Source: Gluconacetobacter tumulicola
Lineage (GTDB): Bacteria; Pseudomonadota; Alphaproteobacteria; Acetobacterales; Acetobacteraceae
NCBI RefSeq assembly: GCF_014174215.1
Contig: NZ_JABEQL010000021.1
Coordinates: 1-63,623 of the forward strand
Length of the DNA stretch: 63,623 bases
Direction of reading: 5' to 3'
Shown: one piece after another, positions 2,948 to 17,326 of the stretch
Layout of the letters: every line of letters starts with the position of its first letter
How positions within the stretch are numbered: the stretch's first letter is position 1
Notes under the pieces: model-generated
The model's input: the letters and a program-made list of their open reading frames with translations, nothing else
Database searches by the model: none
What the model was told of the DNA's origin: nothing
Program-made: the position numbers and the translations under genes

Positions 2948-4249
2948 TCAGAAATGCGTTCTCACACCGAAGGCGACGATGTTGCCGTAATCGTTGTAGG
3001 TGCCGACCAGGCGCCCCGAGGTCGCGGAGGCGGCATTGTCGATTTTGGGGTTGGTGCCGAAGATGTGGGCGTAGGACAGGGTGAGGGTCACACGCTTGAT
3101 GGGCGTGTAGTCCACGCCCACGCCCAGATCGAAACGATTGGTATCCGGCGTGATCGTGTTGCGGTTTTTCAGGGTCGTCGGGCTCTGGTCGTAGCTGAAG
3201 CCGCCGCGAATGAGTGTGGATTTCGAGGCCCGGTACGTCGCGCCGATGCCGCCGAACCAGCTATTGCGCCAGTTGACCGCGATCGATGTGCTGGCGCCGC
3301 CGGGGTGATCGGACACGTTGTTCAGCCCGTGCAGGAGGGACCAGTGTGTCCATTCGCCCTGCAGCATGATGGTCCAGCGCGGTGACAGGACCCGGGTGAC
3401 GCCGAACGAGACGCTGTCGGGCAGGGTGACCTGCATGGCGCCATGGCCGCTCTGGGCGATCAGCGAGCCATTGACCAGCCGGTTGGCGGCCAGCAGCGGC
3501 GGGGGCGAAAACTGGGTGCGGGTGGAGAGATCGTACGCGATGCGCGACTGGTAGTTGATGCCGATCTGGGTCGCGTCATCGGGCTTGTACAGGAGGCCGG
3601 CATCGTAACCGAAGCCGAAGGCGTTGCCGGCCATGTCGGCCGTGGTCGGCCCGAAGGCGTTCAGCGCGCCGAGATTGACATCGCGCGTGAGGCGGCCGGT
3701 GAGAAAGCCCAAGCGCGGGCCGACGCCGACCGAGAAGTGCCTGTTGAAGCGGTAGGAGGCCATTGCCCCGAGTTCGTAGTCCGTGATCGAACTGACGAGG
3801 CTCTGATAACGGCCGACCCAGTTGGACGGGTAATTGGCGCGCTGGCCGTAGGGGGTATAGAACCCGTAGCCGATCGCCCAGCGGGGATCGATTTTCAGGA
3901 CGCCGTAGCTGGCGGCGGTGGCGGCGTCGGTGATGCCGCGATTGCCCTGCACGCCCGGGGTGGTGATGCCGGGGCCCAGATAGTTCTGGCCGGAGAACCG
4001 GGCAACCGGGCCGGCGTAGAACACGTTGCCCTGCAATTCGCTATAGTCGAGGAAGGACATGCCGGCGGGGTTCATCAGGACGGTCGAGGCGTCCCCCGCG
4101 CGGCTGACGGAGCCGACATAGGCGTTGCCCAGTGAAATCGCATCGGTCTCACGCAAGGCGAAGCCCGAGGCGGCGGCCTGGTGGCCGGGGCTGAGCAATG
4201 TCTGGGTGATGAGGGCGCTGCATGCCATCAGTGTGATTTTCTTTTTCAT
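2948..4249 (-). CDS. fadL: FadL/OmpP1-family outer membrane fatty acid transporter
   Basis: An outer membrane beta-barrel of the FadL/TodX family, which imports long-chain fatty acids or other hydrophobic compounds. It has 433 residues: a signal peptide (MKKK start, cleavage near AAA-SG), then the family's N-terminal hatch sequence with SGFALRE, NAYVGSVSRAGDASTVLMNPAGMS, and a C-terminus ending in aromatic-plus-Phe (VRTHF), as expected for barrel assembly. It is the first gene of a likely fadL-fadD unit. A palindromic candidate operator lies 29 bp upstream. Confidence 0.9.
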   Translation of the reverse strand: MKKKITLMACSALITQTLLSPGHQAAASGFALRETDAISLGNAYVGSVSRAGDASTVLMNPAGMSFLDYSELQGNVFYAGPVARFSGQNYLGPGITTPGVQGNRGITDAATAASYGVLKIDPRWAIGYGFYTPYGQRANYPSNWVGRYQSLVSSITDYELGAMASYRFNRHFSVGVGPRLGFLTGRLTRDVNLGALNAFGPTTADMAGNAFGFGYDAGLLYKPDDATQIGINYQSRIAYDLSTRTQFSPPPLLAANRLVNGSLIAQSGHGAMQVTLPDSVSFGVTRVLSPRWTIMLQGEWTHWSLLHGLNNVSDHPGGASTSIAVNWRNSWFGGIGATYRASKSTLIRGGFSYDQSPTTLKNRNTITPDTNRFDLGVGVDYTPIKRVTLTLSYAHIFGTNPKIDNAASATSGRLVGTYNDYGNIVAFGVRTHF

Positions 4250-4277
4250 TATTGACTGACCATCTCAGCATTCAAAC

Positions 4278-4291
4278 CAAACATTTGGTAG
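4278..4291. promoter_or_regulatory. candidate TetR/FadR-type operator before fadL
   Basis: Read on the minus strand the site is CTACCAAATGTTTG, which matches 12 of 14 bases of the perfect palindrome at 16279-16292. It sits 29 bp upstream of the fadL start, where a repressor could block transcription. The assignment to the TetR protein at 15301-16095 is inference. Confidence 0.5.
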
Positions 4292-4601
4292 GTTAATCGG
4301 ACAATCGCATCCCCCATGTCTCTGATCCGGGAAAACCATGAGCGCGGCCCCAGCGGCTTGCAAGAAAATTACGGCAGGAATCGGAAGCGGCGCGCTTCAC
4401 ACTCTCTCGATTGAAAAGCCGGAAATGACGGCGCCAAACGTTGGAAAAAGAAGGGAGTTCCGACGGGTGACCGGATCTGGCTTTTTTTGATGGGGAGACG
4501 ATTATCGGCGCGGCAGGCGCGCGGCCGGTCTTTCATGTGGGGGATGGCGGGACGGATATTCTGCAGAACAATCGTTCGGTAGAATATGTCGTCGAAAGGG
4601 G

Positions 4602-4636
4602 GCGGGAAGACCGGGTCGCCCCTATGGTCTTCCCGC
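4602..4636 (-). terminator. hairpin downstream of etfA
   Basis: An 11-bp perfect inverted repeat (GCGGGAAGACC with GGTCTTCCCGC, 13-nt loop) starts 12 bp beyond the etfA stop. On the minus strand it is followed by CCCCTTTC, a weak U tract. It probably ends the ETF transcript. The rest of the 4250-4647 gap holds the fadL promoter region and no visible gene. Confidence 0.6.
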
Positions 4637-4647
4637 TGGGGGCTGGA

Positions 4648-5583
4648 TTATCCGAGGGCCGCCGTGAGGGCGGGAACGATCTGGAACAGGTCGCCGACCA
4701 GGCCGTAATCCGCGACCTGAAAGATGGGGGCTTCCTCGTCCTTGTTGATGGCGACGATCACCTTGCTGTCCTTCATGCCTGCCAGATGCTGGATGGCGCC
4801 GGAGATGCCGCAGGCGATATAGAGATCGGGCGCGACGATCTTGCCGGTCTGGCCGACCTGGTAATCGTTGGGGACGAAGCCGGAATCGACGGCGACGCGG
4901 GAGGCGCCGATGGCGGCGCCGAGCCTGTCGGCCAGCGGTTCCAGAATCTTGAACCCTTCCGCGCTTTGCAGGCCGCGGCCGCCGGAGACGATGACCCTTG
5001 CGGCTTCGAGCTGGGGGCGTTCGGTGCTGGAATGTTCCGCCGAGACGAAGCGCGATTTCTGCTGGCCATCGGGTGGGGTCAGGGCTTCGATCGGGGCGGC
5101 GCCGCCCTCGGCGGCCACGGGGTCGAAGCTGGCGGTGCGGATGGTCAGGAGCTTCTTCGCATCCGACGAACGCAACGTGACCAGCACGTTGCCCGCGAAG
5201 ACCGGCCGCACGAAGGTCTGGGAATCCCTGATCTCCATGACATCGGGGATCACCTGCACGTCGAGCAGGGCGGCGGCGCGGGGCAGGGTGCTCTTGCCGA
5301 TGGCGGTCGCGGCGGCGACGATATGATCGTAGTCCGGGGCGAGGGCGACGAGCAGTGCTGCCAGTGGCTCCGCCAGGCCGTGGGCGAAGGCTTCGCCCGA
5401 TGCGGTGCGGACCTTGCGGATGCCGGGGATTTTTGCCGCACTTGCCGCCGCGGCTGCGATGGTGTCGGGGCCGCCGGTCACCAGCACGTCGATATCGCCG
5501 AGGCTGGCCGCCGCCGCGATGGCCGAGCGGGAGGTCTGCGGGATGGTGCCGTCTTCGGCATCCAGGAGGACGAGCGCGGTCAT
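4648..5583 (-). CDS. etfA: electron transfer flavoprotein alpha subunit
   Basis: The FAD-binding alpha subunit of the soluble heterodimeric ETF, which takes electrons from acyl-CoA dehydrogenases to ETF-ubiquinone oxidoreductase. Its 311 residues are typical. The C-terminal FAD domain has the signature [16 protein letters not shown] (about residue 195), [43 protein letters not shown], and the terminal [20 protein letters not shown]. It begins 2 bp after the etfB stop, so the two subunits are translationally coupled. Confidence 0.96.
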
Positions 5584-5585
5584 GG

Positions 5586-6335
5586 TCAGATCACCTTGGC
5601 TTCGTTGCGGAGTTTTTCGACCAGTTCGGCCACGCTGCCCACCTTGATGCCTGCCTTGCGGGCCGGGGGCTCGGCCATCGAGAGGATGGCGAGGCGGCGC
5701 GTCAGGTCGATGCCGAGATCGGTGGCCGCGATGGTCTCCAGCGGCTTCTTCCTGGCCTTCATGATGTTGGGCAGCGCGGCGTAGCGCGGCTCGTTCAGGC
5801 GCAGGTCGGCGGTGACGATGGCGGGCAGGGCCAGGGCCAGGGTTTCCGAGCCGCCATCGACTTCGCGCGTGACGGCGAGCCCGTCCGCCGTCTTTTCGAC
5901 CCGGCTGGCGAAGGTAGCCTGTGGCCAGTCCAGCAGGCCGGCGAGCATCTGGCCGGTGGCGTTCATGTCATCGTCGATGGCCTGCTTGCCGAGGATGACG
6001 AGGTCGGGCTTTTCGCGATCGACGAGGATTTTCAGGATCTTGGCGACGGCGAGCGGTTCGGGGCTTTCCTCGGACTGGACGAGGATGGCGCGGTCGGCGC
6101 CCATGGCCAGGGCGGTGCGCAGCGTGTCGGCTGCCTGGGGGACGCCGATGGAGACGGTCAGGATTTCGCTCGCGACGCCCTTCTCGCGCAGGCGCAGGGC
6201 TTCCTCGACCGCGATTTCGTCGAACGGGTTCATCGACATCTTGACGCCGGCGGTCTCGACGCCGCCGCCATCGCGCCTGACGCGGACCTTTACGTTGTAA
6301 TCGACGACGCGTTTGATGGGGACAAGGATTTTCAT
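5586..6335 (-). CDS. etfB: electron transfer flavoprotein beta subunit
   Basis: The AMP-binding beta subunit of ETF, 249 residues as usual. The sequence starts [19 protein letters not shown] and carries the beta signature [18 protein letters not shown] (about residue 36) and the recognition-loop region near [30 protein letters not shown] lies just upstream of the ATG. It lies between ETF-QO (34 bp upstream) and etfA, giving a complete module for moving acyl-CoA dehydrogenase electrons into the quinone pool. Confidence 0.96.
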
Positions 6336-6369
6336 GGTTCCTCAGGAGAAATGAAGGGTTGGGGGCGGA

Positions 6370-8001
6370 TTACATGCCGCCCGGATAGTTGGGGCCGCCG
6401 CCGCCTTCGGGCGTGTACCAGTCGATATTCTGGGGCGGGTCCTTGATGTCGCAGGTTTTGCAGTGGACGCAGTTCTGCGCGTTGATCACGAGCCGGGGCG
6501 CGGTTTCGGCATCGGCGACTTCATAGACGGCGGCCGGGCAATAGCGGATTTCGGGCGCGCGGTACGTGTCCCAGTTGAGGGGCTTCCACAGGGCCGGGTC
6601 GCGCAGGCGAAGATGGGTCGGCTGGTCCTCCACATGGTTCGTGTTGGACAGGAAGACCGAGGAGAGCTTGTCGAAGGTGATCGTGCCGTCGGGCCTGGGA
6701 TAGGCGGGCGGCGGGCAGGATGCGGCGGGGCGGAGGGTCTCGTGGTCCGCATGGTGGAAGTGGAGCGTCCAGGGCGCGCGGCCGCGCAGGATGGCGGCGT
6801 CGATGCCGGCATAGAGCGCGCCGCGCAGCGTGCCCCATCGCGCGAAGGCGGGGCGGATGTTGCGGGCGGCCGACAGTTCCTGATGCAGCCACGATACCTG
6901 CAGCCGGTCGGTGAAGGTATCGGGTTCCGGCGCGTCTGCCGCATGGGCCGCCGCTATGGCCTCTGCGGCGAGCATGCCGGATTTCATGGCCGTGTGGGTG
7001 CCCTTGATCTTGGGCGTGTTGAGGAAGCCTGCCGCGTCGCCGATCAGGGCGCCGCCGGGGAAGGTGAGGCGGGGGAGGGATTGCAGCCCGCCTTCGGACA
7101 GCGCGCGGGCGCCGTAGATCAGGCGGCGGCCACCTTCGAAATATTTGCGATAGACCGGGTGGAGCTTGGTGCGCTGCATTTCGTCATAGGGGGAGAGCCA
7201 GGGATTGGCGTAGTCGAGCCCGGTGACGAAGCCGTAGGAGACGAGGTTTTTGCCGAAATGATAGAGCCAGGCGCCGCCATAGGTCCGGTCGTCCAGCGGC
7301 CAGCCGAAACTGTGCAGTACCAGGCCGGGTTCATGCAGTTCGGCAGGGATTTCCCAGACTTCCTTGATTCCCAGGCCGAAGGTCTGCGGATCGACGCCCT
7401 GGCGCAGGTTGAAATGCGCCATGACGCGCTTGGTCAGGGAGCCGCGGCAGCCTTCGGCGAACAGGGTGTATTTGCCGCGCAGTTCCATGCCCGGCGCGAA
7501 ATTCGGGCCTTTCGTGCCATCGCGGGTGATGCCCATGTCGCCGGTGAGGATGCCGGCGACGCGACCGTTCTCGATCAGCACGTCCGCGCCGGCGAAGCCG
7601 GGATAGATTTCCACCCCCATCGCCTCGGCCTGTGTGGCCATCCAGCGGCAGACATCACCCAGGCTGACGACGAAATTGCCGTGATTGGCCAGATGCGGCA
7701 TGACCCATGGCAGGGCGGGGATGCGGAATGCCTTGCGTTCGGTCAGGAGATACATCTCCTCACGCGTGACCGGCGTGTCGAGCGGGGCATTGCGGTCGCG
7801 CCAGTCGGGCAGCAATTCGTCGAGCGCCCGGGGCTCGATGACCGCGCCGGAGACGATATGTGCGCCGATTTCGCTGCCTTTTTCGATCAGGCAGACGGAT
7901 TCGTCGGGCATAAGCTGTTTCAGCCGGATGGCGGCTGCCAGCCCGGCCGGGCCGCCGCCGACGATCACGACGTCGAACTCCATGATGTCCCGTTGGCTCA
8001 T
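6370..8001 (-). CDS. electron transfer flavoprotein-ubiquinone oxidoreductase
   Basis: Membrane-associated ETF-QO, which oxidises reduced ETF and reduces ubiquinone. The 543-residue product has an N-terminal FAD-binding site (VVIVGGGPAGLAAAIRLKQL, about residues 10-30), the family segment SGAVIEPRALDELLPDW, GDAAGFLNTPKIKGTHTAMKSGMLAAEA (about 335), and the C-terminal 4Fe-4S motif NCVHCKTCDIKDP. The ATG at 8001 was preferred to the longer reading from 8094 because the extra residues are arginine-rich junk and GGAG lies upstream of 8001. It heads the ETF-QO/etfB/etfA transcript and faces the thiolase operon across a 609-bp control region. Confidence 0.95.
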   Translation of the reverse strand: MSQRDIMEFDVVIVGGGPAGLAAAIRLKQLMPDESVCLIEKGSEIGAHIVSGAVIEPRALDELLPDWRDRNAPLDTPVTREEMYLLTERKAFRIPALPWVMPHLANHGNFVVSLGDVCRWMATQAEAMGVEIYPGFAGADVLIENGRVAGILTGDMGITRDGTKGPNFAPGMELRGKYTLFAEGCRGSLTKRVMAHFNLRQGVDPQTFGLGIKEVWEIPAELHEPGLVLHSFGWPLDDRTYGGAWLYHFGKNLVSYGFVTGLDYANPWLSPYDEMQRTKLHPVYRKYFEGGRRLIYGARALSEGGLQSLPRLTFPGGALIGDAAGFLNTPKIKGTHTAMKSGMLAAEAIAAAHAADAPEPDTFTDRLQVSWLHQELSAARNIRPAFARWGTLRGALYAGIDAAILRGRAPWTLHFHHADHETLRPAASCPPPAYPRPDGTITFDKLSSVFLSNTNHVEDQPTHLRLRDPALWKPLNWDTYRAPEIRYCPAAVYEVADAETAPRLVINAQNCVHCKTCDIKDPPQNIDWYTPEGGGGPNYPGGM

Positions 8002-8099
8002 ATAGAGGTCTCCAGTGTTCGGGTACCGGGCGGTGCGGACGCGGCATCTGGTGGGCGTGGTACCGTTCGACAGGGGAAGTCTATATCGCGCCACGTTTT

Positions 8100-8115
8100 T
8101 ATCGAACAGTCGATA
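8100..8115. promoter_or_regulatory. inverted repeat upstream of ETF-QO
   Basis: A perfect inverted repeat, TATCGA-ACAG-TCGATA, lies 99 bp upstream of the ETF-QO start. Shifted by one base and read on the minus strand (CTATCGACTGTTCG), it matches 10 of 14 bases of the palindrome at 16279-16292. It may be a weaker member of the same operator family. Confidence 0.35.
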
Positions 8116-8333
8116 GGTAGAGAGTGGGCCCCCGTGGATGGTGGAAGAGGGGGCAGGGCATACAGAGAAATTGCATAAAATAATGATAAGAAAAGAAATT
8201 GTCTGTTTTTTCTCTCTCCGTCACATGTTTGAGATCGGCGTCTGGCCTGGTGCCGATGCGGGAGTGTGGCGTGGATATCCGGCGGGTGCCGGCGGCGGTC
8301 TTTCCCCGCGATTCCGGGGAGGGACGAAAAAAT

Positions 8334-8347
8334 CTAACGATCGTTCG
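8334..8347. promoter_or_regulatory. palindrome in the ETF-QO/thiolase intergenic region
   Basis: CTAACGATCGTTCG is a near-perfect palindrome (all but one base pair) and matches 10 of 14 bases of the site at 16279-16292. It lies midway in the 8002-8610 divergent intergenic region, an otherwise gene-free, partly AT-rich stretch. Confidence 0.4.
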
Positions 8348-8560
8348 TATGAATTTTTGAGGAATGCGGCGTGAGGCGTAAACGGCGGATTCTTATGATA
8401 ATATATTGATATAAGTGACGAATCTGTGCAGGATCGCGCGGGTTTTCCTTCTTCGGACGGTGGCGGGTTCCATCAATGAACCGTGTCATCACGACAAAGC
8501 GTCTTTGCCGGGAGGCCGCCATTCAATTATCAAAGGGGGGCACAACGCGCGCCTTCGTTC

Positions 8561-8574
8561 CAAACAAACGTTAG
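8561..8574. promoter_or_regulatory. candidate TetR/FadR-type operator before the thiolase operon
   Basis: CAAACAAACGTTAG matches 12 of 14 bases of the palindrome at 16279-16292. It ends 36 bp before the thiolase start codon, a position similar to the site before fadL. This is consistent with repression of the beta-oxidation operon by the same regulator. Confidence 0.5.
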
Positions 8575-8610
8575 ACATAATGGGCGAGGGCATTGCCAGG
8601 AGCGCCATTC

Positions 8611-9750
8611 ATGAATTCCGTTGTCATCGCAGGATATGCGCGATCGCCGTTTCAGCTCGCGCGCAAGGGGCAGTTCGTCAGGACGCGCCCCGATGATATC
8701 GCGGCCCAAGTCGTGCGGGCCCTGGTGGAGCGCACGGGGGTTGCGCCCGAGGAGATCGAGGACCTGATCCTTGGCTGCGCGTTTCCGGAAGGAGAGCAGG
8801 GTTTCAATCTCGGCCGGATCGTGGCGCTGCTGAGCGACCTGCCGCTTTCTGTGGGTGGGGTGACGGTCAACCGTTTCTGCGGCTCTTCGATGCAGTCGGT
8901 CCATATGGCGGCCGGGGCGATCCGCATGGGGGCCGGGGAGGTCTTTATCTGCGCGGGTGTGGAGAGCATGACGCGCATTCCGATGGGTGGGTTCAATCCG
9001 CTGCCCAATCCGGCGCTCTACAAGAAGCGCCCGGGTGCGTACATGGACATGGGCATCACGGCCGAGAATGTCGCGCGGACATACGAGATCGGGCGCGCGG
9101 AGCAGGAGGCGTTTGCGCTGCGCAGCCAGGCGCGTACCCGCGATGCCGTCGCGGCGGGCCGGCTGGAGGCGGAGATCGTGCCGATCCAGACCCGTGACGG
9201 TGTGGTCTCGGTCGATGGCTGCCCACGTCCGGACACCAATGCGGAGGGGCTGGCGGGACTGAAGCCGGCCTTCGACGCGGCCCATGGCACGGTGACGGCG
9301 GGCACGTCCTCGCCGCTGACCGACGGGGCGGCATCCGTGCTGGTCTGTTCGGAGGCGTATGCCGACCGCAAGGGGCTGCCGAAGCTGGCGCGCATCCGCT
9401 CGATCGCCATTTCCGGTTGCGCGCCCGAGGTGATGGGGCTGGGCCCGATCCTTTCGTCGCGCAAGGCGCTGGAGCGTGCGGGGATTGCGATCGGGGATGT
9501 GGGCGTCGTGGAGTTGAACGAGGCCTTTGCTTCGCAGTCGATCGCCTGCGTGCGCGAACTGGGAGTGCGTGACGAGACGCTGAATATCGATGGCGGTGCG
9601 ATCGCGCTGGGCCACCCGCTGGGCGCCACCGGCGCGCGCATCGTCGGCAAGGCGGCGCAGCTTCTGGGGCGCGAGGGGGCGCGGTACGCGCTGGCGACGC
9701 AATGCATCGGCGGTGGGCAGGGCATCGCCACGGTGTTGGAGCGCATCTGA
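8611..9750 (+). CDS. fadA: acetyl-CoA acyltransferase (3-ketoacyl-CoA thiolase)
   Basis: The last step of the beta-oxidation cycle: thiolytic cleavage of 3-ketoacyl-CoA to acetyl-CoA plus a shortened acyl-CoA. The product is 379 residues. Catalytic residues are visible: nucleophile Cys90 in NRFCGSSMQ, His335 in GHPLGATGAR and Cys365 in QCIGGGQG. The ATG at 8611 is preferred to a TTG at 8593 because AGGAG lies 8 bp ahead of it. Its stop overlaps the next start by one base (TGATG), so it is coupled to the FadN-like gene. The order thiolase, dehydrogenase/hydratase, acyl-CoA dehydrogenase has the same three functions as the B. subtilis fadNAE operon. Confidence 0.94.
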   Translation: MNSVVIAGYARSPFQLARKGQFVRTRPDDIAAQVVRALVERTGVAPEEIEDLILGCAFPEGEQGFNLGRIVALLSDLPLSVGGVTVNRFCGSSMQSVHMAAGAIRMGAGEVFICAGVESMTRIPMGGFNPLPNPALYKKRPGAYMDMGITAENVARTYEIGRAEQEAFALRSQARTRDAVAAGRLEAEIVPIQTRDGVVSVDGCPRPDTNAEGLAGLKPAFDAAHGTVTAGTSSPLTDGAASVLVCSEAYADRKGLPKLARIRSIAISGCAPEVMGLGPILSSRKALERAGIAIGDVGVVELNEAFASQSIACVRELGVRDETLNIDGGAIALGHPLGATGARIVGKAAQLLGREGARYALATQCIGGGQGIATVLERI

Positions 9751-12101
9751 TGACCCAGCATATTCCATCTGGCGGGACGGACGGCGCACGGCCGACCTTC
9801 TCGCGCGTCTGCGTGATCGGCTCGGGGGTGATGGGGGCGGGGATTGCCGCCCAGATCGCCAATGCCGGGGTGCCGGTGCTGCTGCTGGACCGCAAGGCGG
9901 ACGGGGCGGACCCGAACGCGCTGGCCAATGACGCGATCGCCAGGGCGCTGAAGACCGATCCGGCGCCCTTCATGGACCCGGCGGCGGCGAAGCTGATCAC
10001 GACCGGCAATATCGATGACGATCTGGCCCGGGTCGCGGAATGCGACTGGGTGGTCGAGGTGATTATCGAGCGGCTGGACCTCAAGCAGGCGCTCTATCGC
10101 CGGCTTGACGCCGTCCATCGGCCCGGCACGCCGATTTCGTCGAATACGTCGACCATTCCGCTGGCGCGGCTGGTGGAGGGGCTGCCGGCGCGTTTCACGC
10201 GCGATTTCCTGATTACGCATTTCTTCAACCCGCCGCGCTACATGCGGCTGCTGGAAATCGTGACCGGGCCCACGACCGATCCGGCGCATGTCGGTGCGGT
10301 GACGGATTTCTGCGACCGGTGGCTGGGCAAGAGTGTCGTGCGGGCCAAGGATACGGCGGGCTTCATCGCCAACCGCATCGGCACGTTCTGGATGCAGGCG
10401 GCGGCGCGGGTGGCGGTGGACCATGGGCTGACGGTGGAGCAGGTCGATACGATCATCGGCCGGCCGTTCGGCATTCCCAAGACCGGTGTGTTCGGATTGC
10501 TGGACCTGGTGGGCATCGATCTGATGCCGCATATCTCGGCCAGCATGAAGTCGCTGCTGGCGGCCGGGGACCGGTACCATGCCTTTGCCGACGATCTGCC
10601 GCTGATCGGGAAGATGATCGAGGGGGGCTATACCGGCCGCAAGGGCAAGGGTGGCTTCTACCGCATCAACAAGGCGGGCGGTGGGAAGGTCAAGGAATCG
10701 ATCGATCTGGCCACGGGCGCCTATGCGGTCTCCGAACGGTTTGCGCTGCCGCCGGGTGCGGGGGATATGGCGGGGCTGCTGGCCGCCAATGACCGGTTCG
10801 GGGCCTATGCGCGCAAGGTGATGGGCGAGACGCTGGCCTATGCGGCGTCGCTGGTGCCCGAGATCTCGGACGATATCGTCGGTATCGACAAGGCGATGGA
10901 GCTGGGATTCAACTGGAAGAAGGGGCCGTTCGCGCTGATCGACCAGATCGGGGCCGCGAAGCTGGCTGCGTTGCTGCGTCAGGAAGGGATCGCGGTGCCG
11001 GCGCTGGTCGAGGCGGTCGGGGATGGGCGGTTCTATCAGGATCGGGACGGCGTGACCCGGGCCTTCGGCGTGGATGGTGGCTGGCATCCGGTGGCGCGCG
11101 CTGAAGGGGTCATCCTGCTGGAGGATTTCCGCAAGGGTGGCAAGCCGGTGCTGTCGAGCCGGTCGGGCGCGCTGTGGGATATCGGCGACGGGGTGGCGTG
11201 CTTCGAGATCACGACGAAGATGAACACGTTCGATGAGAGCGTGATGGCGATCCTGGAAAAATCGATCGCCCATGTCGGGGAGCATTTCAAGGCGCTGGTG
11301 CTCTATTCGGATGCCACGCATTTTTCGGCCGGAGCCAATCTTGGCCTGGCGGCCTTTGCGGCGAACATGGCGGCGTGGGGGGAGATCAGGAAGCTCATCG
11401 TGCGCGGGCAGGCGGTCTACAAGACGTTGAAATATGCGCCGTTCCCGGTTGTGGCGGCGCCGGCCGGCATGGCGCTGGGCGGCGGGTGCGAGATCGTGCT
11501 GCATGCCGATGCCGTGCAGGCGCATGCGGAGAGTTATATCGGGCTGGTCGAATGCGGGGTGGGGCTGGTCCCCGGCTGGGGCGGGTGCGGCGAAATGCTG
11601 GACCGGCTGCGGGCCGATCCGCACACGGCCGGGGGGCCGATGCCGCCGACGCGCGAGGTGTTCGAGATGATCGCCACGGCGCGGGTCTCGAAATCGGCGG
11701 CCGAGGCGCGGCGGATGCATATCCTGCGTGATCGCGACGGCATCACCATGAATCGCGACCGGCTGCTGGCCGACGCGAAGATGCTGGCGCTGTCGCTGGT
11801 CGAGGGATACCGGTCGCCGCCGAAGCCGGAATTCCATCTGGCGGGGGCGGGCGGGAAGCTTGCGCTCGACATGGCGGTTGAGGGTATGGCGCGGCAGGGC
11901 ATCGCGACACCGCATGACGTGACGGTCGCGGGGAAGCTGGCCTTTATCCTGACCGGCGGTGCGCATGACAGCACGGAGAATGTGACGGAGGAGGACATGC
12001 TGGAGCTGGAGCGCGCGGCGTTCCTGGAGCTGATCCAGAGCATTCCGACATTGGACCGGATCGAGCACATGCTCGAAACCGGCAAGCCCCTCAGAAACTG
12101 A
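9750..12101 (+). CDS. 3-hydroxyacyl-CoA dehydrogenase/enoyl-CoA hydratase (FadN-like)
   Basis: A bifunctional beta-oxidation enzyme of 783 residues that hydrates enoyl-CoA and oxidises 3-hydroxyacyl-CoA with NAD. The dehydrogenase half comes first: Rossmann motif GSGVMGAGIAAQIANAG (about residues 25-41), SSNTSTIPL, and HFFNPPRYMRLLEIV with the catalytic His. The hydratase half is C-terminal, with the oxyanion segment APAGMALGGGCEIVLHADAV (about 570). This order is the reverse of E. coli FadB and matches the FadN type. The ATG at 9750 overlaps the thiolase stop; the longer upstream reading is only thiolase sequence in another frame. Confidence 0.93.
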   Translation: MTQHIPSGGTDGARPTFSRVCVIGSGVMGAGIAAQIANAGVPVLLLDRKADGADPNALANDAIARALKTDPAPFMDPAAAKLITTGNIDDDLARVAECDWVVEVIIERLDLKQALYRRLDAVHRPGTPISSNTSTIPLARLVEGLPARFTRDFLITHFFNPPRYMRLLEIVTGPTTDPAHVGAVTDFCDRWLGKSVVRAKDTAGFIANRIGTFWMQAAARVAVDHGLTVEQVDTIIGRPFGIPKTGVFGLLDLVGIDLMPHISASMKSLLAAGDRYHAFADDLPLIGKMIEGGYTGRKGKGGFYRINKAGGGKVKESIDLATGAYAVSERFALPPGAGDMAGLLAANDRFGAYARKVMGETLAYAASLVPEISDDIVGIDKAMELGFNWKKGPFALIDQIGAAKLAALLRQEGIAVPALVEAVGDGRFYQDRDGVTRAFGVDGGWHPVARAEGVILLEDFRKGGKPVLSSRSGALWDIGDGVACFEITTKMNTFDESVMAILEKSIAHVGEHFKALVLYSDATHFSAGANLGLAAFAANMAAWGEIRKLIVRGQAVYKTLKYAPFPVVAAPAGMALGGGCEIVLHADAVQAHAESYIGLVECGVGLVPGWGGCGEMLDRLRADPHTAGGPMPPTREVFEMIATARVSKSAAEARRMHILRDRDGITMNRDRLLADAKMLALSLVEGYRSPPKPEFHLAGAGGKLALDMAVEGMARQGIATPHDVTVAGKLAFILTGGAHDSTENVTEEDMLELERAAFLELIQSIPTLDRIEHMLETGKPLRN

Positions 12102-12120
12102 CGCAAGGGGAGACAGAGAG

Positions 12121-13911
12121 ATGCAAACCTATACACCGCCCCTGCGCGACATGAAGTTCGTGCTGACCGAGCTGCATGATTTCTCGCGGCTCACGACGCT
12201 CGCGGCGTTTTCCGAAGTCGATGCCGATCTGGCGGAGACGGTGCTGGAGGAGGGGGGAAAATTCACCTCCGAAGTGCTGTTGCCGCTGAACATGTCCGGC
12301 GACCGGGAGGGGTGCCGGCTGGAGAATGGGGTCGTCACCACGCCCAAGGGGTTCCGGGAGGCTTATCGGCAGTTCTGCGAGGGGGGCTGGTCGGCGCTGT
12401 CGGCACCGCCGGAATTCGGCGGGCAGGGGCTGCCCGAGACCATCGGCATGATGCTCTCGGAGATGATCTGTGCGACCAACCTGTCGTTCGGCCTGTATCC
12501 GGGCCTGACCGGTGGCGCGATGGTGGCGCTGCGCAAATATGGCTCGGAAGAGCTGAAGGCGCAGTATCTGCCGAAGATGATCAGCGGCGAATGGTCGGGG
12601 AGCATGTGCCTGACCGAGGCGCATTGCGGCACGGATCTGGGGCTGCTGCGCACGAAGGCGGTACCGCAGGAGGATGGGACGTACCGGGTCAGCGGGGCGA
12701 AGATCTTTATCTCGGCCGGAGAGCATGACCTGTCCGAGAACATCATCCATCTGGTGCTGGCGCGGCTGGCGGATGCCCCGGCCGGGATCAAGGGGATCAG
12801 CCTGTTCCTGGTGCCGAAATACCTGCCGCGCGAGGACGGGACGCCGGGCGAGCGCAATGGCGTGCTGTGCACGGGCATCGAGCACAAGATGGGCATCAAG
12901 GCCTCGGCAACCTGCCAATTGGCCTTCGATGACGCGAAGGGCTGGCTGGTCGGCGCCCCGCACAAGGGGATGCAGGCGATGTTCGCCATGATGAATGCCG
13001 AGCGGCTTGGCGTGGGCATCCAGGGGCTGGGGATTGCCGAGGTCTCGTACCAGAGCGCCGTGGCCTATGCGAAGGAGCGGCTGCAGGGGCGGTCGCTGGC
13101 GGGGGCGAAATATCCGGCGTTGCCGGCCGACCCGATCGTCGTGCATCCCGACGTGCGGCGCATGCTCATGACCATGCGCGTCAATGCCGAGGGCTGCCGG
13201 GCGCTGGGGGCGTGGGTGGCGATGACCCTGGATGTGGCCGAGCATGGGGCCGACGAACGCCAGCGCCGCGACGCCGAGGATTTCGTGGCGCTGATGACGC
13301 CGGTGGTGAAGGCGCTGTTCACCGACCTGGGGTTCGAATCGGCCAATCTGGCGGTGCAGACCTATGGCGGGCATGGCTATATCGCCGATCATGGTGTCGA
13401 GCAGCTGGTGCGGGATTCGCGGATTGCGATGATCTATGAAGGCACGAACGGGATTCAGGCGCTCGACCTGGTGGGGCGCAAGCTGCCGCTGCATATGGGG
13501 CGCAATCTGCGCGGGCTCTTTCACCCCATCGCGGCGTTTATTGCCGAGAACAAGGAGAATCCGCTGCTGGGCGAGATGGTCGCCGGGCTGGAGCGTGCGT
13601 TCGGCGCGTTGCAGCTTGCGACCGGACAGGTTGCCGAGCGCGGGATGAAGGACCCGGAGGAGGCGGGGGCGGCCGCGACGGATTATCTGCGCCTGATCGG
13701 GCTGGTCTCGCTGGCCTATCTCTGGGCGCGGACGGTGGCGGTGGCCGTGCCGAAATCCTTCGCCGCCGGGCCGGATCAGGCATTCTACAGCGGGAAGATT
13801 GCCTCCGCCCGTTTCTTCTACGATCGTGTTCTTCCGGAATCGGCGTCGCTTTATCTGAAGATCAAGGCGGGCAAGGCGTCGATGATGGCGCTGGCCGACG
13901 ACGCCTTCTGA
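12121..13911 (+). CDS. fadE: acyl-CoA dehydrogenase (long FadE-type)
   Basis: An FAD-dependent acyl-CoA dehydrogenase of 596 residues, longer than the 380-residue short-chain enzymes and matching the subfamily with an extra C-terminal domain. It introduces the first double bond into acyl-CoA and passes electrons to ETF. Motifs include MCLTEAHCGTDLGLLRTKA (about residue 160), QTYGGHGYIADHGVEQLVRDSRIAMIYEGTNGIQALDLVGRKL with the region of the catalytic Glu (about 415-455), and the usual terminal KAGKASMMALADDAF. GGGGAGA precedes the ATG. It is the third gene of the thiolase operon. Confidence 0.93.
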   Translation: MQTYTPPLRDMKFVLTELHDFSRLTTLAAFSEVDADLAETVLEEGGKFTSEVLLPLNMSGDREGCRLENGVVTTPKGFREAYRQFCEGGWSALSAPPEFGGQGLPETIGMMLSEMICATNLSFGLYPGLTGGAMVALRKYGSEELKAQYLPKMISGEWSGSMCLTEAHCGTDLGLLRTKAVPQEDGTYRVSGAKIFISAGEHDLSENIIHLVLARLADAPAGIKGISLFLVPKYLPREDGTPGERNGVLCTGIEHKMGIKASATCQLAFDDAKGWLVGAPHKGMQAMFAMMNAERLGVGIQGLGIAEVSYQSAVAYAKERLQGRSLAGAKYPALPADPIVVHPDVRRMLMTMRVNAEGCRALGAWVAMTLDVAEHGADERQRRDAEDFVALMTPVVKALFTDLGFESANLAVQTYGGHGYIADHGVEQLVRDSRIAMIYEGTNGIQALDLVGRKLPLHMGRNLRGLFHPIAAFIAENKENPLLGEMVAGLERAFGALQLATGQVAERGMKDPEEAGAAATDYLRLIGLVSLAYLWARTVAVAVPKSFAAGPDQAFYSGKIASARFFYDRVLPESASLYLKIKAGKASMMALADDAF

Positions 13912-13993
13912 CGCGCATGCCGTCCTGCTTCGCCGGGTGGAGGAGCGGGACGGCATTTCGTGCGGATCTGCCTGCTTTCTGGGGAACGATGTG

Positions 13994-14491
13994 ATGGTCC
14001 ATCTGTCTGACACTTCGCCGGCGGGGGCGCGGTCCGCGGGATTTCGTCCGCTGCCCCTGCTCAGTGGAACCGGCTTCGATGCGGCGATCGGCGGGTTTGA
14101 CGTGGCGGAATCGGACGGGCGATTGCTGGCCGGCTTTACCGTGGAGCCTCGTCACTGCAATCACGCGGGGGTCTGCCATGGCGGGATGATCGCCACCGTC
14201 TTTGACGGGTATATGGCCATGGCGACACTGTTCGAGAATGATCTGCAGGTGCCTATCCTGCCCACGATGTCACTGGTCGTCGATTTCCTGGCGCCGGGCA
14301 TGCCGGGCGACTGGGTGGAGTTCAGCGCCGACGTGCTGCGGGTCACGCGGAATACGGTCTTCGTCCAGGGGCTGGCGCGGGTGGAGGGCAAGCCGATCGG
14401 GCGGGCCAGTGGTGTCTATAAACGGCTCGCGCCCGATTCCGAGTTGCCGTTCGATACCGGAAAGTTGCTGCGCGATTTCCTGCGGAGCTGA
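13994..14491 (+). CDS. PaaI-family hot-dog thioesterase
   Basis: A 165-residue single hot-dog-fold protein, likely an acyl-CoA thioesterase of the PaaI/YigI type. The family signature HAGVCHGGMIATVFDGYMAMA (about residues 57-77) holds the HGG motif and the catalytic-type Asp. It lies 82 bp after the acyl-CoA dehydrogenase and probably belongs to the same transcript, where it could release CoA from dead-end or excess acyl-CoAs. Either GTG 13991 or ATG 13994 could start it; GGGGA lies just upstream. Confidence 0.85.
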   Translation: MVHLSDTSPAGARSAGFRPLPLLSGTGFDAAIGGFDVAESDGRLLAGFTVEPRHCNHAGVCHGGMIATVFDGYMAMATLFENDLQVPILPTMSLVVDFLAPGMPGDWVEFSADVLRVTRNTVFVQGLARVEGKPIGRASGVYKRLAPDSELPFDTGKLLRDFLRS

Positions 14492-14664
14492 CCGGGTTGC
14501 TTCTCCGCGCGGGCTGCGCGCGCGGCAATTCCCGTCGCGGATAGCCGGGTTGCACCGGTGGGTGGCGTATATCGGGCGTTTTTGTGTTTCAGACTGTTCA
14601 GCCGTCAAGTCCAAACCGGGATGCCGCATACGGCGGTGCCCGACATGCTCTGGAGGATTGCCTT

Positions 14665-15258
14665 ATGTCTGGATTGCGCAGGTCGTCATTCCATATCGGC
14701 TTGGCCCTGGTGGCCGGGTTGATGGGAGCATCATCCGCCGGTCATGCGGACACCAGGGTCGGAGGGGCCGTCTTTCCCGATGATCTGAAGATCGGCAATA
14801 CGTCCCTGAAGCTCAATGGCGTGGGAGTGCGTGTCTTCTATCATCTGGTGGATGGGTATGCGACCGGGCTTTACCTCGTCTCGCCGGCCCATGATGGTAA
14901 AACTATTGCCGAGGGGCCGAATCCGAAGGTCATTTATACCGAATTCCTTCATGATGCGCCGCTGGAGCGGGTGAAGGATGAATATGATTCGATCCATGCC
15001 CGCTACTGCAAGCTTTATGCATGCAGTGCACAGAACGAAGCCTCCTATGCCGCTTTTACCGGCCATCTGGCTGCCGCGAAGAGGGGGGAGGCGCAGCTTA
15101 TCCTCGTGACGGACCAGGGGGTCAGCATGCAGCGCAACGGTGTGGTGGTGGCGTCGATCGCTGACCCCTCGTTCGGGGTGGGGCTTGTGCAATCGCTGCT
15201 GAGTGCGGCGGCGCCGACCGAAGGGTTTCGCGACGGGCTGCTGGGTGCGGCGAACTGA
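14665..15258 (+). CDS. exported chalcone-isomerase-like protein
   Basis: A 197-residue protein with a signal peptide (cleavage near GHA-DT, about residue 29) and a chalcone-isomerase-like domain. The family hallmark GVGVRVFYHLVDGYATGLYL (about 53-72) follows FPDDLKIGNTSLKLNG. Bacterial members are periplasmic or membrane-associated and thought to bind fatty acids or similar ligands rather than to isomerise chalcones. The ATG is preceded by GGAGG at 8 bp. Its position behind a beta-oxidation operon fits lipid binding, but that is inference. It ends at a strong terminator. Confidence 0.8.
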   Translation: MSGLRRSSFHIGLALVAGLMGASSAGHADTRVGGAVFPDDLKIGNTSLKLNGVGVRVFYHLVDGYATGLYLVSPAHDGKTIAEGPNPKVIYTEFLHDAPLERVKDEYDSIHARYCKLYACSAQNEASYAAFTGHLAAAKRGEAQLILVTDQGVSMQRNGVVVASIADPSFGVGLVQSLLSAAAPTEGFRDGLLGAAN

Positions 15259-15266
15259 GGAGGGGG

Positions 15267-15301
15267 CCTGGCCTCGCGGTTTCGGAGGCCGGGTTTTTTT
15301 T
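15267..15301 (+). terminator. rho-independent terminator
   Basis: A 9-bp stem (CCTGGCCTC with GAGGCCGGG, one G-T pair), a 9-nt loop and a run of eight T follow 8 bp after the stop of the chalcone-isomerase-like gene. This is a classic intrinsic terminator for the plus-strand genes. It abuts the stop codon of the convergent TetR gene. Confidence 0.85.
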
Positions 15302-16095
15302 CAGGCCATTGATTTATCGAGTATATCGGAAGAGGCTTGGGCAGCGGGGCGGCGTCCCGGCTTCGGCGTGCGCCCTGTCGGGCGGTTGCGTGGCCTGGTC
15401 GATGTGGGGGCGGTTTCCCTGTCCGCTTCCGTTTCGGCCTGGTGCCTGAAAATGGTGAAGATCTGGTGGGCGATCTGGTCGTGGGACATGCGGCCGCTGC
15501 GGTACCAGTCGCTGGCGGTGTTGAGGACGCGCAGCAGCAGGATCCGGTAGATGTCGCGATCGATCGTGGACGGCAGCGGCAGGTCGTCGATGATGTTGCG
15601 AAAGATCGTCTCGAATTCATCGCGTTTCTTGATCAGCGCGCTGCGCACGTCCGGCGGTGCGGAGATGATGCTGTTCATCAGCGGGAGCGTGATGGATGTC
15701 AGGCTGAGCTGGATATCCAGCAATTCGGCGCAAGCGGCCTCGAGCCTGGACCAGGGCGCGGTATGGGGCGCGATGGCCGAGAAGATCCGGCTGGCCGCCG
15801 CGTCGAGCGCGCGGTTATGGATCTCGACGAAAAGGGATTCCTTCGACTGGATGTGGTAGTAAAGCGATCCGGCCATCATGCCGACCGCATCCGCGATCTG
15901 GCGGATCGAGGTGGCCTTGTAGCCGCGTTCGGAGAAAAGCTGCGCGGCGACCTCGAGAATCTCCTGCCGACGTTCGGCCTGTGTGCCGGATTCCTCGCCA
16001 TTCGGGCTGCCCTGGAGCGCGCGCATGGCGGAGAGGACGGACCGTCCGGCGGGCGCCCGGGTTCTTCTGTTCGGCGGCGTGCGGGATATCGTCAT
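15301..16095 (-). CDS. TetR/AcrR-family transcriptional regulator
   Basis: A repressor-type regulator of 264 residues by the chosen start. After a basic, proline-rich N-terminus comes the DNA-binding domain: ERRQEILEVAAQLFSERGYKATSIRQIADAVGMMAGSLYYHIQSKESLF (about residues 42-90). The rest should be an all-helical ligand domain, with a basic, low-complexity tail. It is divergent from the nitronate-monooxygenase-like gene and flanked by the fatty-acid genes. Palindromes of one type lie before fadL, the thiolase operon and the divergent gene, so it is the best local candidate for an acyl-CoA-responsive FadR/PsrA-like regulator. The start is uncertain (16179, 16095 or 16026). Confidence 0.85.
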   Translation of the reverse strand: MTISRTPPNRRTRAPAGRSVLSAMRALQGSPNGEESGTQAERRQEILEVAAQLFSERGYKATSIRQIADAVGMMAGSLYYHIQSKESLFVEIHNRALDAAASRIFSAIAPHTAPWSRLEAACAELLDIQLSLTSITLPLMNSIISAPPDVRSALIKKRDEFETIFRNIIDDLPLPSTIDRDIYRILLLRVLNTASDWYRSGRMSHDQIAHQIFTIFRHQAETEADRETAPTSTRPRNRPTGRTPKPGRRPAAQASSDILDKSMA

Positions 16096-16278
16096 TCTCG
16101 GTCGATTCCAGAACTGGATTGTTTCGGCCCGTCGGTCCGACATTTGAAAGAATACAGGATTTGTTGGGAGATTTGTCATTTTCTATTGGCATCGTAAGGT
16201 TTTGTGCCCTCAACCATCCGTGATGGAAGGGGCCGCGTTTGCGGCTCGACGCGGACTGGCGCCCGGAGTAGATAAGGG

Positions 16279-16292
16279 CTAACAAATGTTAG
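16279..16292. promoter_or_regulatory. palindromic operator, best copy
   Basis: CTAACA-AA-TGTTAG is a perfect 6-2-6 inverted repeat in the TetR/nitronate-monooxygenase intergenic region, 53 bp upstream of the latter's start. It is the best member of a set of related sites at 4278, 8100, 8334 and 8561 and could mediate autoregulation of the TetR gene. Confidence 0.6.
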
Positions 16293-16345
16293 AAATTTTG
16301 GGTGCGATTGCCGGGGGCGGAACCCGTGGCGGGTGGGAGAGGGGC

Positions 16346-17326
16346 ATGTCCATGCCGATGACGTTTCAGGGCAGGCTGGCGTTGCCGGCCATCGTCGCGC
16401 CCATGTTTCTTGTCTCGACCGTCGAACTGGTCCTGGCCTGTTGCCGTGCCGGGGTGGTGGGATCGTTTCCCGCGCTGAATGCGCGACCGGCGCCGGTTCT
16501 GGAAGAATGGCTGCACTGCCTGACATCGTCCCTGACCGGGAAGGATGCGCCGTTTGCCGTCAATCTGATTGTTCACCGCAGCAATGCCAGGCTGGACGAG
16601 GATCTGGCGCTGGTGGTCAAGTACAAGGTGCCGGTTGTCATTACGTCGCTTGGTGCGCGGCCCGAAGTCAATGATGCGGTGCATGGGTATGGCGGCATCG
16701 TCCTGCATGATGTGACGACCAATGAATTCGCGCGAAAGGCGGTGTTGCGCGGAGCGGACGGGTTGATCGCGGTGGCCGCCGGAGCGGGGGGACATGCGGG
16801 AACGCAATCGCCCTTCGCGCTGGTGCAGGAAATCAGGGCGTGGTTCGATGGGCCGCTCGCGCTGTCCGGTGCCATTGCGAACGGCCGCGCGATTGTCGCG
16901 GCGCGGGCGCTGGGGGCCGACCTGGCCTATATCGGCTCGGCGTTCATCGCGACGGAGGAAGCGGCAGCCGACCCGCGCTACAAGCAGATGATCGTGGAAT
17001 CGTCTGCTGAGGACATCGTCTATTCAAACCTGTTTACCGGTGTGCATGGCAATTATCTGGCCCCCAGCATTCGTGCGGCCGGTCTTGACCCGCATGCCCT
17101 CGCCTTGTCCGATCCGTCGCGCATGGACGTGTCGACATTCTCGGGCGGCGGGACGAAGGCGTGGCGGGATATCTGGGGGGCGGGGCAGGGGATTGGCGCG
17201 GTCGAATCGGTTGTGCCGGCCGCGACGCTGATTGCCCGGCTGCGGCGGGAATATCGGGATACGCTCGCCCTGCTGGCGGACGAAGATCGTGCGTTGAAGG
17301 GGAACCATATGCGTGCGGGTGGTTAA
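16346..17326 (+). CDS. nitronate monooxygenase/2-nitropropane dioxygenase-like flavoprotein
   Basis: An FMN-dependent TIM-barrel enzyme of 326 residues. Family features are LPAIVAPMFLVSTVELVLACCRAGVVGSFPALNAR (about residues 10-45), the FMN-binding segment AAGAGGHAGTQSPFALVQEIR with a catalytic-type His, and LSGAIANGRAIVAARALGADLAYIGSAFIAT. Members oxidise nitronates; some act as enoyl reductases. The start was set at 16346 because GGGAGAGGGG lies directly upstream, and a start at 16286 would fall inside the palindromic operator. Shared operator motif and position suggest a link with fatty-acid metabolism. Confidence 0.88.
   Translation: MSMPMTFQGRLALPAIVAPMFLVSTVELVLACCRAGVVGSFPALNARPAPVLEEWLHCLTSSLTGKDAPFAVNLIVHRSNARLDEDLALVVKYKVPVVITSLGARPEVNDAVHGYGGIVLHDVTTNEFARKAVLRGADGLIAVAAGAGGHAGTQSPFALVQEIRAWFDGPLALSGAIANGRAIVAARALGADLAYIGSAFIATEEAAADPRYKQMIVESSAEDIVYSNLFTGVHGNYLAPSIRAAGLDPHALALSDPSRMDVSTFSGGGTKAWRDIWGAGQGIGAVESVVPAATLIARLRREYRDTLALLADEDRALKGNHMRAGG

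What the first reader, a model, noticed from the sequence alone, without database searches (positions are those of the whole stretch)
4278..16292. A local TetR regulon tying together uptake, activation, beta-oxidation and ETF genes
A perfect 14-bp palindrome (CTAACAAATGTTAG) stands beside a TetR gene, and 12/14 matches lie 29 bp before fadL and 36 bp before the thiolase start. Weaker 10/14 copies lie before ETF-QO and mid-intergenic. All members are fatty-acid genes or adjacent to them, so the TetR protein is a plausible acyl-CoA-sensing repressor whose regulon is visible within one 13-kb stretch. The sites are seen directly; binding is inferred.
Basis: partly seen in the sequence, partly recalled or inferred. 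Interest (0 to 1): 0.7.

Follow-up and report, generated by a model that had tools for sequence, protein, structure and literature searches.

The report
Fatty-acid gene switch in acetic-acid bacteria
A repressor-like protein and a short DNA tag that marks fatty-acid-burning genes occur together in several related vinegar-type bacteria; the kind of switch is familiar, but this one appears to have a twin regulator and to reach genes elsewhere in the genome, some of them for handling acetate.

Summary
CTAACAAATGTTAG is at 16279-16292; it is a 6-2-6 inverted repeat, not a perfect palindrome. The 12/14 copies before fadL (4278) and fadA (8561) and the 10/14 copies at 8103 and 8334 are there, and I add a weaker candidate at 4563. 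A matrix built only from four sites in other genera ranks five of these six first in the 63.6-kb window. The genome has one further exact copy, between a thiolase gene and a paralogous TetR gene (63% identical). In the genus the sites persist in 7 of 7 genomes with this TetR, recur before an unlinked second beta-oxidation cluster in 3, and are not seen within 2 mismatches in the one fad cluster examined that lacks such a TetR. The regulon is therefore not local: a succinyl-CoA:acetate CoA-transferase, a second thiolase and perhaps an acetate transporter also carry the site. Best reading: two paralogous TetR repressors sharing one operator (ACCWAACRNNYGTTWGGT), released by an acyl-CoA. Binding, repression and ligand are inferred; the nearest solved folds include CoA-thioester sensors. 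A new member of a known kind.

The parts
1220..2878 (-). fadD-like long-chain acyl-CoA ligase; 69 bp downstream of fadL on the same strand, probably one operon
   Evidence: Pfam AMP-binding and AMP-binding_C; NCBIfam best hits long-chain-fatty-acid--CoA ligases, below their cut-offs
2948..4249 (-). fadL-like outer-membrane fatty-acid transporter
   Evidence: Pfam Toluene_X/FadL 7.7e-71
4276..4293 (.). operator candidate 1, ACCAAACATTTGGTAGGT, 1 mismatch to ACCWAACRNNYGTTWGGT
   Evidence: CTAYCAAATGTTTG in 7 of 7 genus genomes with TetR-A, this one included
4563..4580 (.). operator candidate 6 (weakest), GCAGAACAATCGTTCGGT, between etfA and fadL
   Evidence: core kept in an otherwise diverged stretch of the 7-genome alignment (AACGAYYGTT in 6, AACGATTGCT in 1); matrix rank 5 to 7 in the window; the G128 copy is within 2 mismatches of the 18-mer
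4648..5583 (-). etfA, electron transfer flavoprotein alpha subunit
   Evidence: Pfam ETF_alpha 4e-37
5586..6335 (-). etfB, electron transfer flavoprotein beta subunit
   Evidence: Pfam ETF 1.2e-40
6370..8094 (-). ETF-ubiquinone oxidoreductase (ETF-QO)
   Evidence: Pfam Fer4_ETF_QO 5.3e-46, ETFQO_UQ-bd 1.3e-38
8101..8118 (.). operator candidate 5, ATCGAACAGTCGATAGGT, just before etfQO
   Evidence: 14-mer and right flank invariant in 7 of 7 genomes; 3 mismatches to the 18-mer; matrix rank 5 or 6
8332..8349 (.). operator candidate 4, ATCTAACGATCGTTCGTA, mid-intergenic
   Evidence: arms CTAACG..GTTCGTAT constant and centre varying in 7 of 7 genomes; 1 mismatch to CTAACRNNYGTTAG
8559..8576 (.). operator candidate 3, TCCAAACAAACGTTAGAC; its 14-mer ends 36 bp before the fadA ATG
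   Evidence: CRAACAAACGTTAG in 7 of 7
8611..9750 (+). fadA, 3-ketoacyl-CoA thiolase (ORF opens at TTG 8593)
   Evidence: TIGR01930 420.7 bits against cut-off 240.55
9702..12101 (+). fadB, 3-hydroxyacyl-CoA dehydrogenase/enoyl-CoA hydratase
   Evidence: Pfam 3HCDH_N, 3HCDH, ECH_1
12121..13911 (+). fadE-type acyl-CoA dehydrogenase with Acyl-CoA_dh_C tail
   Evidence: Pfam
13937..14491 (+). hot-dog thioesterase
   Evidence: Pfam 4HBT 2.6e-9
14665..15258 (+). chalcone-isomerase-like protein (ORF 14584-15258); membership of the regulon not shown
   Evidence: Pfam Chalcone_3 4.5e-15
15301..16095 (-). tetR-A regulator (ORF to 16179; likelier start 16095)
   Evidence: Pfam TetR_N 9.2e-16, TetR_C_24 1e-11; start from relatives with upstream stops
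16277..16294 (.). operator candidate 2, GGCTAACAAATGTTAGAA, between tetR-A and the flavin oxidoreductase
   Evidence: exact 14-mer in 6 of 7 genomes, CTAACGATCGTTAG in the 7th
16346..17326 (+). FMN-dependent nitronate-monooxygenase/FabK-like flavin oxidoreductase, divergent from tetR-A
   Evidence: Pfam NMO 3.3e-21 on the longer ORF 16286-17326; in Acidomonas its homologue lies directly after the thiolase gene beside the TetR

Best explanation
tetR-A (15301-16095) and its unlinked paralogue tetR-B (C1) encode TetR repressors that bind one shared operator, ACCWAACRNNYGTTWGGT (core AAC-N4-GTT). In this Gluconacetobacter genome the operator stands before fadL-fadD, etfQO-etfB-etfA, fadA-fadB-fadE-thioesterase, the divergent flavin oxidoreductase/tetR-A pair, the divergent acetyl-CoA acetyltransferase-like thiolase/tetR-B pair, a succinyl-CoA:acetate CoA-transferase and probably an acetate uptake transporter. 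Without fatty acids the repressors sit on or beside these promoters; when FadL/FadD deliver acyl-CoA, the thioester binds the C-terminal pocket, the repressors release, and uptake, beta-oxidation, electron removal through ETF/ETF-QO and downstream acetyl-CoA handling are induced together. Shown here: genes, sites, placement, conservation, paralogue. Inferred: operon structure, binding, repression, ligand, cross-regulation by the two paralogues.
For: Two exact copies in 4.29 Mb, each beside one of two paralogous tetR genes. 5 of 5 places with up to 2 mismatches precede tetR, the flavin gene or acyl/acetyl-CoA genes. A matrix trained on four sites from other genera ranks window sites 4276, 8332, 8559, 16277, 8101 as 1-5; 1 of 1000 permuted matrices does as well. 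Sites kept in 7 of 7 genus genomes with TetR-A. An unlinked second cluster etfQO-fadB-fadE-etfBA-thiolase-CoA-transferase in 3 genomes has the site before etfQO. Acidomonas, G117, G068 and G006, whose TetR is 37-71% identical, have the site beside the regulator or its fad operon. In 8 genus genomes with a TetR relative 22 of 28 strong 18-mer hits lie at these loci (one search placed); the 6 without have 3 hits in all. G131, a fad cluster without this TetR at E 1e-30, has no site within 2 mismatches in 19 kb. Nearest folds: KstR2, AibR with isovaleryl-CoA, PfmR.
Against: No binding, expression or ligand data. Motif-like strings over the genus are not more numerous than for the reversed control. 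The four 'distant' training sites were themselves found with a consensus that began from this window. A blind dyad scan of ten regulator-side or operon-side regions puts the site first outright in 2, level with the top score in 4, and not on top in 4, among them the window's own tetR-A region. In G125, G127 and G042 no site within 2 mismatches adjoins tetR-B (one lies 1.9 kb away in G127). In G128 the tetR-B-side site is about 870 bp from the thiolase. The thiolase and CoA-transferase promoters share further sequence (by eye), so those two sites are not independent. The G125 transporter promoter has lost most of the site. G131's best matrix scores (11.4 and 12.2) are close to those of the weakest window site (13.6 and 12.3).
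Confidence: 0.7

Rival explanations
1. The sites are read only by TetR-B or by another TetR-family protein with a PsrA-like operator, and TetR-A controls just its divergent flavin gene.
For: TetR-B is present in 7 of 7 genomes with TetR-A; G122 has a single relative, closer to TetR-B (64% against 59% to TetR-A), and the etfQO2 operon beside it has a site. The PsrA motif G/CAAAC(N2-4)GTTTG/C (PMC10304680, passages) resembles this one. This genome has 14 TetR-like matches at E 0.001, 12 of them not examined as readers of the site.
Against: The two paralogues differ little in the helix-turn-helix and each has the same exact operator beside it; the window's operators are kept in 7 of 7 genomes with TetR-A.
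Confidence: 0.15
2. The regulator senses a short or branched acyl-CoA (acetoacetyl-, butyryl-, isovaleryl-CoA) rather than a long-chain acyl-CoA; the unit is tuned to acetyl-CoA and short-chain acid use, with long-chain genes as followers.
For: The members outside the window are an acetyl-CoA acetyltransferase-like thiolase, a succinyl-CoA:acetate CoA-transferase and perhaps an acetate transporter; AibR with isovaleryl-CoA is among the closest folds (TM-score 0.80 on the target).
Against: fadL, a long-chain uptake gene with fadD behind it, carries a conserved strong site.
Confidence: 0.25
3. The matches are chance AT-rich strings in AT-rich intergenic DNA plus inherited synteny; only the tetR-side site is functional.
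For: The motif is AT-rich in a 65% GC genome, other blocks in the same intergenic regions are equally conserved, and raw counts do not exceed controls over the genus.
Against: Sites accompany fad operons at unlinked positions and in other genera; matrix permutation 0 to 2 of 1000; the site at 8334 keeps its arms while its centre varies.
Confidence: 0.08

Closest known systems
PsrA (TetR) of Pseudomonas and its Stenotrophomonas/Xanthomonas orthologues
   Same: TetR repressor of beta-oxidation genes; operator G/CAAAC(N2-4)GTTTG/C (PMC10304680, passages) has the same AAC-N4-GTT layout as CAAACAAACGTTAG
   Different: Orthology not shown: chain 2fbq (recalled as PsrA/PA3006) scores 30.8 bits over query residues 67-159 only, against 66.7 for the best PDB chain; here two paralogues share the operator, and ETF genes and a CoA-transferase are members
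FadP (TetR) of Burkholderiales
   Same: TetR repressor of many beta-oxidation operons, next to one of them (PMC12543098, passages; PMC5343134, passages)
   Different: PMC5343134 reports FadP only in betaproteobacteria among its genomes; the primary paper (PMC2612455) is not held, so motif and orthology were not compared
FadRSa of Sulfolobus acidocaldarius
   Same: TetR regulator inside a fatty-acid cluster, with its main binding sites in that cluster, released by acyl-CoA (PMC6449355, abstract and passages)
   Different: Archaeal; described as a local repressor of its cluster; no paralogue described in the passages seen
KstR2, AibR, PfmR
   Same: Among the closest solved folds; KstR2 and AibR have structures or ligands with CoA thioesters
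   Different: 24-28% identity; their pathways (steroid, isovalerate, others) are known from titles and general knowledge

Membership tests
TetR family | N-terminal TetR helix-turn-helix and all-helical C-terminal domain | tested here: met
   TetR_N 57.8 bits against cut-off 24, TetR_C_24 45.5 against 26.4; predicted all-helical core; the listed Foldseek hits are TetR-type regulators by title, with 4mo7/4mxm titled superantigen PfiT but named transcriptional regulator I2
TetR-type fatty-acid-degradation repressor (functional class) | Operators at promoters of fatty-acid-degradation genes and at its own gene | tested here: met
   Sequence evidence only:
TetR-type fatty-acid-degradation repressor (functional class) | DNA binding released by acyl-CoA or fatty acid | not testable with these tools
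   Nearest folds KstR2 and AibR are CoA-thioester binders; no assay
PsrA | Orthology to P. aeruginosa PsrA | tested here: inconclusive
   Weak partial match to 2fbq (its identity as PsrA is recalled); no tree built
PsrA | Operator G/CAAAC(N2-4)GTTTG/C | tested here: inconclusive
   Some relatives' sites fit it (G006 CAAACGATTGTTTG, G127 CAAACAAGTGTTTG); the window's sites fit at most one arm
FadP | Orthology and motif of Kazakov et al. 2009 | not tested
   Paper not held

The most novel reading that the evidence does not exclude
Acetic-acid bacteria of this group run a two-repressor circuit in which paralogous TetR proteins share one operator and join fatty-acid beta-oxidation, including its ETF electron chain, with acetate handling (a second thiolase, succinyl-CoA:acetate CoA-transferase, acetate transporter), so that acyl-CoA would gate acetate as well as fatty-acid use.
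Probability: 0.35. Interest if true: 0.55.

Novelty: new member of a known kind. Interest (0 to 1): 0.42.

Why it matters
It gives a testable operator and two regulators for fatty-acid use in Acetobacteraceae. Ten full-text searches (bear on it most) listed, by title and start of abstract among the rows shown, no described fatty-acid regulon in that family; the library holds only open-licence papers. It also suggests a regulatory link between beta-oxidation and acetate metabolism in organisms known for making and tolerating acetate (general knowledge).

Tried and rejected
The exact 14-mer as the whole motif: too narrow, it misses the etfQO and mid-intergenic sites; replaced by CTAACRNNYGTTAG and then the 18-mer from conserved flanks. 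G005's exact 14-mer lies just before an ORF that by eye looks like a histidine kinase, in a genome with no TetR match at E 1e-30: set aside as chance. Counting motif hits against the reversed pattern: not useful, controls are as high or higher over the genus and at looser settings. A Fisher test on hit counts with and without TetR (28/3 against 33/17, p 0.017) is weak because the genomes are related. The sigma-70 promoter scan gave 1 hit against 1.9 expected. C13:20978 and C34:4417, the other two places within 1 mismatch of the symmetric pattern, were looked at only as ORF lists (two C13 ORFs also by Pfam) and are not claimed. Of the 6 of 28 strong hits not at the named loci, the surroundings of 3 were looked at (L173, L165, L169): two lie inside long open frames, one between GST and LysR genes; the other 3 were not examined, nor were the 3 hits in genomes without the TetR, beyond noting that G131's is about 400 kb from its fad cluster. 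The output was cut in the middle, so one genome's fadA site (G042) and the start of the tetR-A block rest. One structure model was made and compared with the pdb library only.


Full report
What is there. The window is contig C21 of a 4.29-Mb, 90-contig genome close to Gluconacetobacter asukensis (its TetR is 98% identical). Along the window: fadD and fadL (-), etfA, etfB, etfQO (-), then fadA, fadB, fadE, a thioesterase and a chalcone-isomerase-like gene (+), tetR-A (-) and a divergent nitronate-monooxygenase/FabK-like flavin oxidoreductase (+).

The observation. One search finds the 14-mer exactly at 16279 and with two mismatches at 4278 and 8561; 0 of 100 shuffles reach the count. It is a 6-2-6 inverted repeat rather than a perfect palindrome. 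The two 10/14 copies are at 8103 and 8334. Start-codon distances are 28 bp (fadL), 36 bp (fadA), 8 bp (etfQO ORF) and 53 bp (flavin gene). tetR-A probably starts at 16095, since relatives have in-frame stops upstream, so its operator is 183 bp away.

Whole genome. With up to two mismatches there are five places: three here, C1:235622 (exact) and C37:29240. C1:235622 lies between a thiolase gene and a divergent tetR whose product is 63% identical to TetR-A over 205 residues, with MGGSLYYHI in place of MAGSLYYHI in what I take from family knowledge to be the recognition-helix region. That thiolase passes only the general acetyl-CoA C-acyltransferase cut-off (TIGR01930); its best model is an acetyl-CoA C-acetyltransferase, below cut-off. 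C37:29240 lies 117 bp before a gene that passes the cut-offs for succinate CoA-transferase and succinyl-CoA:acetate CoA-transferase. The pattern CNAMCAARYGWTWG, written to cover those five, finds those five and nothing else in the genome (reversed control 1). With the symmetric CTAACRNNYGTTAG and at most one mismatch there are six places: three in this window, C1, and two not claimed. With the 18-mer ACCWAACRNNYGTTWGGT and at most two mismatches there are four: fadL, C37, C1 and C24:39874. The last lies about 80 bp before an acetate uptake transporter gene (AceTr_1, 259.7 bits against cut-off 50).

Related genomes. Of 14 genus genomes, 8 hold a TetR relative at E 1e-30 or better; 7 hold TetR-A and TetR-B, one (G122) a single relative closer to TetR-B. 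In 7 of 7 with TetR-A: fadL CTAYCAAATGTTTG and fadA CRAACAAACGTTAG; the tetR-side site is exact in 6 and CTAACGATCGTTAG in G128. The alignment of the etfQO-fadA interval shows the 8103 14-mer unchanged in 7 of 7 and the 8334 site with constant arms and a varying centre, as expected of a dyad operator. etfQO itself was not found at this place in 2 of the 7 (G125, G127; tblastn), which carry another in a second cluster. The fadL-etfA alignment shows a conserved core at about 4563, which I add as a weaker candidate. Other blocks are equally conserved (for example GTGTCATCACGACAAAGCGTC before fadA), so conservation alone does not single out the operators.

Beyond the cluster. G120, G125 and G127 have a second, unlinked cluster etfQO-fadB-fadE-etfB-etfA-thiolase-CoA-transferase, and each has a site upstream of its etfQO with no tblastn match to TetR-A or TetR-B in the 19-kb stretch (E 1e-15). 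In G122 the etfQO2 operon is next to its tetR with the site between. In Acidomonas methanolica (L035/L109) the site lies between tetR and thiolase-flavin oxidoreductase; in G117 about 290 bp before thiolase-CoA-transferase-etfQO-fadB-fadE-etfBA; in G068 between fadE and tetR; in G006 upstream of tetR. G131 has fadL, fadD, fadA, fadB and fadE (52-70% identical) but no TetR relative at that threshold, and no site within two mismatches in 19 kb. Counting strong 18-mer hits over the 14 genomes: 28 in the 8 with a TetR relative, of which 22 are at the loci named here; 3 in the other 6, whose surroundings I did not examine (G131's is about 400 kb from its fad cluster). The reversed control pattern gives 33 and 17, so abundance is no evidence; placement is.

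Matrix test. A matrix from 16 sites of other genomes ranks 4276, 16277, 8559, 8332, 4563, 8101 as the top six in 63.6 kb, all in 1,161 bp of intergenic DNA (2 of 1000 permuted matrices match). That set includes orthologues of the window's sites. With only the four sites of Acidomonas, G117, G068 and G006, ranks 1-5 are 4276, 8332, 8559, 16277, 8101 (1 of 1000), 4563 being seventh; with eight sites none of which is an orthologue of a window site, ranks 1-6 are the six candidates, the sixth tied in rounded score with 21160, outside the cluster (0 of 1000 for the top five). These training sites were found with a consensus that began here, so some circularity remains. A blind dyad scan of ten regions puts the site first outright in 2, level with the top score in 4 and not on top in 4, including the window's own tetR-A region.

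The protein. Pfam TetR_N plus TetR_C_24. The predicted core (residues 71-240, ten-residue pLDDT means 76-95; both tails below 50) matches KstR2, AibR in complex with isovaleryl-CoA (TM-score 0.80 on the target), PfmR and Bacillus FadR among TetR folds. KstR2's PDB ligands are cholesterol-CoA derivatives (PMC13176608, passages). That makes a CoA thioester the likeliest effector class, not a shown one.

Interpretation. The simplest account is a pair of paralogous TetR repressors sharing one operator. The motif has the AAC-N4-GTT layout of PsrA operators (PMC10304680, passages), and the arrangement resembles FadP and FadRSa systems. The C37 and C1 promoters share further sequence by eye, so the CoA-transferase site is probably inherited from a thiolase-type promoter; in G128 thiolase and CoA-transferase matches lie one after the other, the nearest site being by tetR-B about 870 bp upstream. 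The acetate transporter is tentative: the site is identical in 4 genomes (G000, G120, G121, G127), altered in G042 and mostly deleted in G125; the less similar transporters of G122, G126 and G129 have none, and G128 has no transporter match at E 1e-40.

Papers. I saw passages of PMC5343134, PMC13176608, PMC6449355 (with abstract), PMC10304680, PMC12543098 and PMC4424350, and search listings otherwise; Kazakov et al. 2009 is not held.

Noticed in passing
window 8483-8503 (GTGTCATCACGACAAAGCGTC, before fadA) and window about 4394-4410 (TCGAGAGAGTGTGAAGC on the fadL strand): Two further blocks invariant in 7 of 7 genus genomes that do not fit the TetR operator; possibly sites of another regulator.
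   Followed up: no
L029:7060-7450 and L028:7560-7960: The succinyl-CoA:acetate CoA-transferase and thiolase promoters share stretches by eye (TCAATCA.GTGTGATG, TTCGGCCTCGACAGG), as if one promoter had been copied.
   Followed up: partly
G000:C2:217212 and G000:C3:175859: The same 18-mer ACCGAACACAGGTTCGGT stands at two places on different contigs; it may be the dyad of another regulator.
   Followed up: no
G000:C38:28229-28246 (L152): A 3-mismatch operator-like string lies just before a different TetR gene.
   Followed up: no
L172 (G127:C6:100208-100821): The acetate transporter gene of G127 matches in two overlapping pieces, suggesting a frame break.
   Followed up: no
window 6370-8094 against L096, L097: etfQO was not found at this place in G125 and G127, which hold another in a second cluster, while the conserved 8103 block is kept.
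   Followed up: partly
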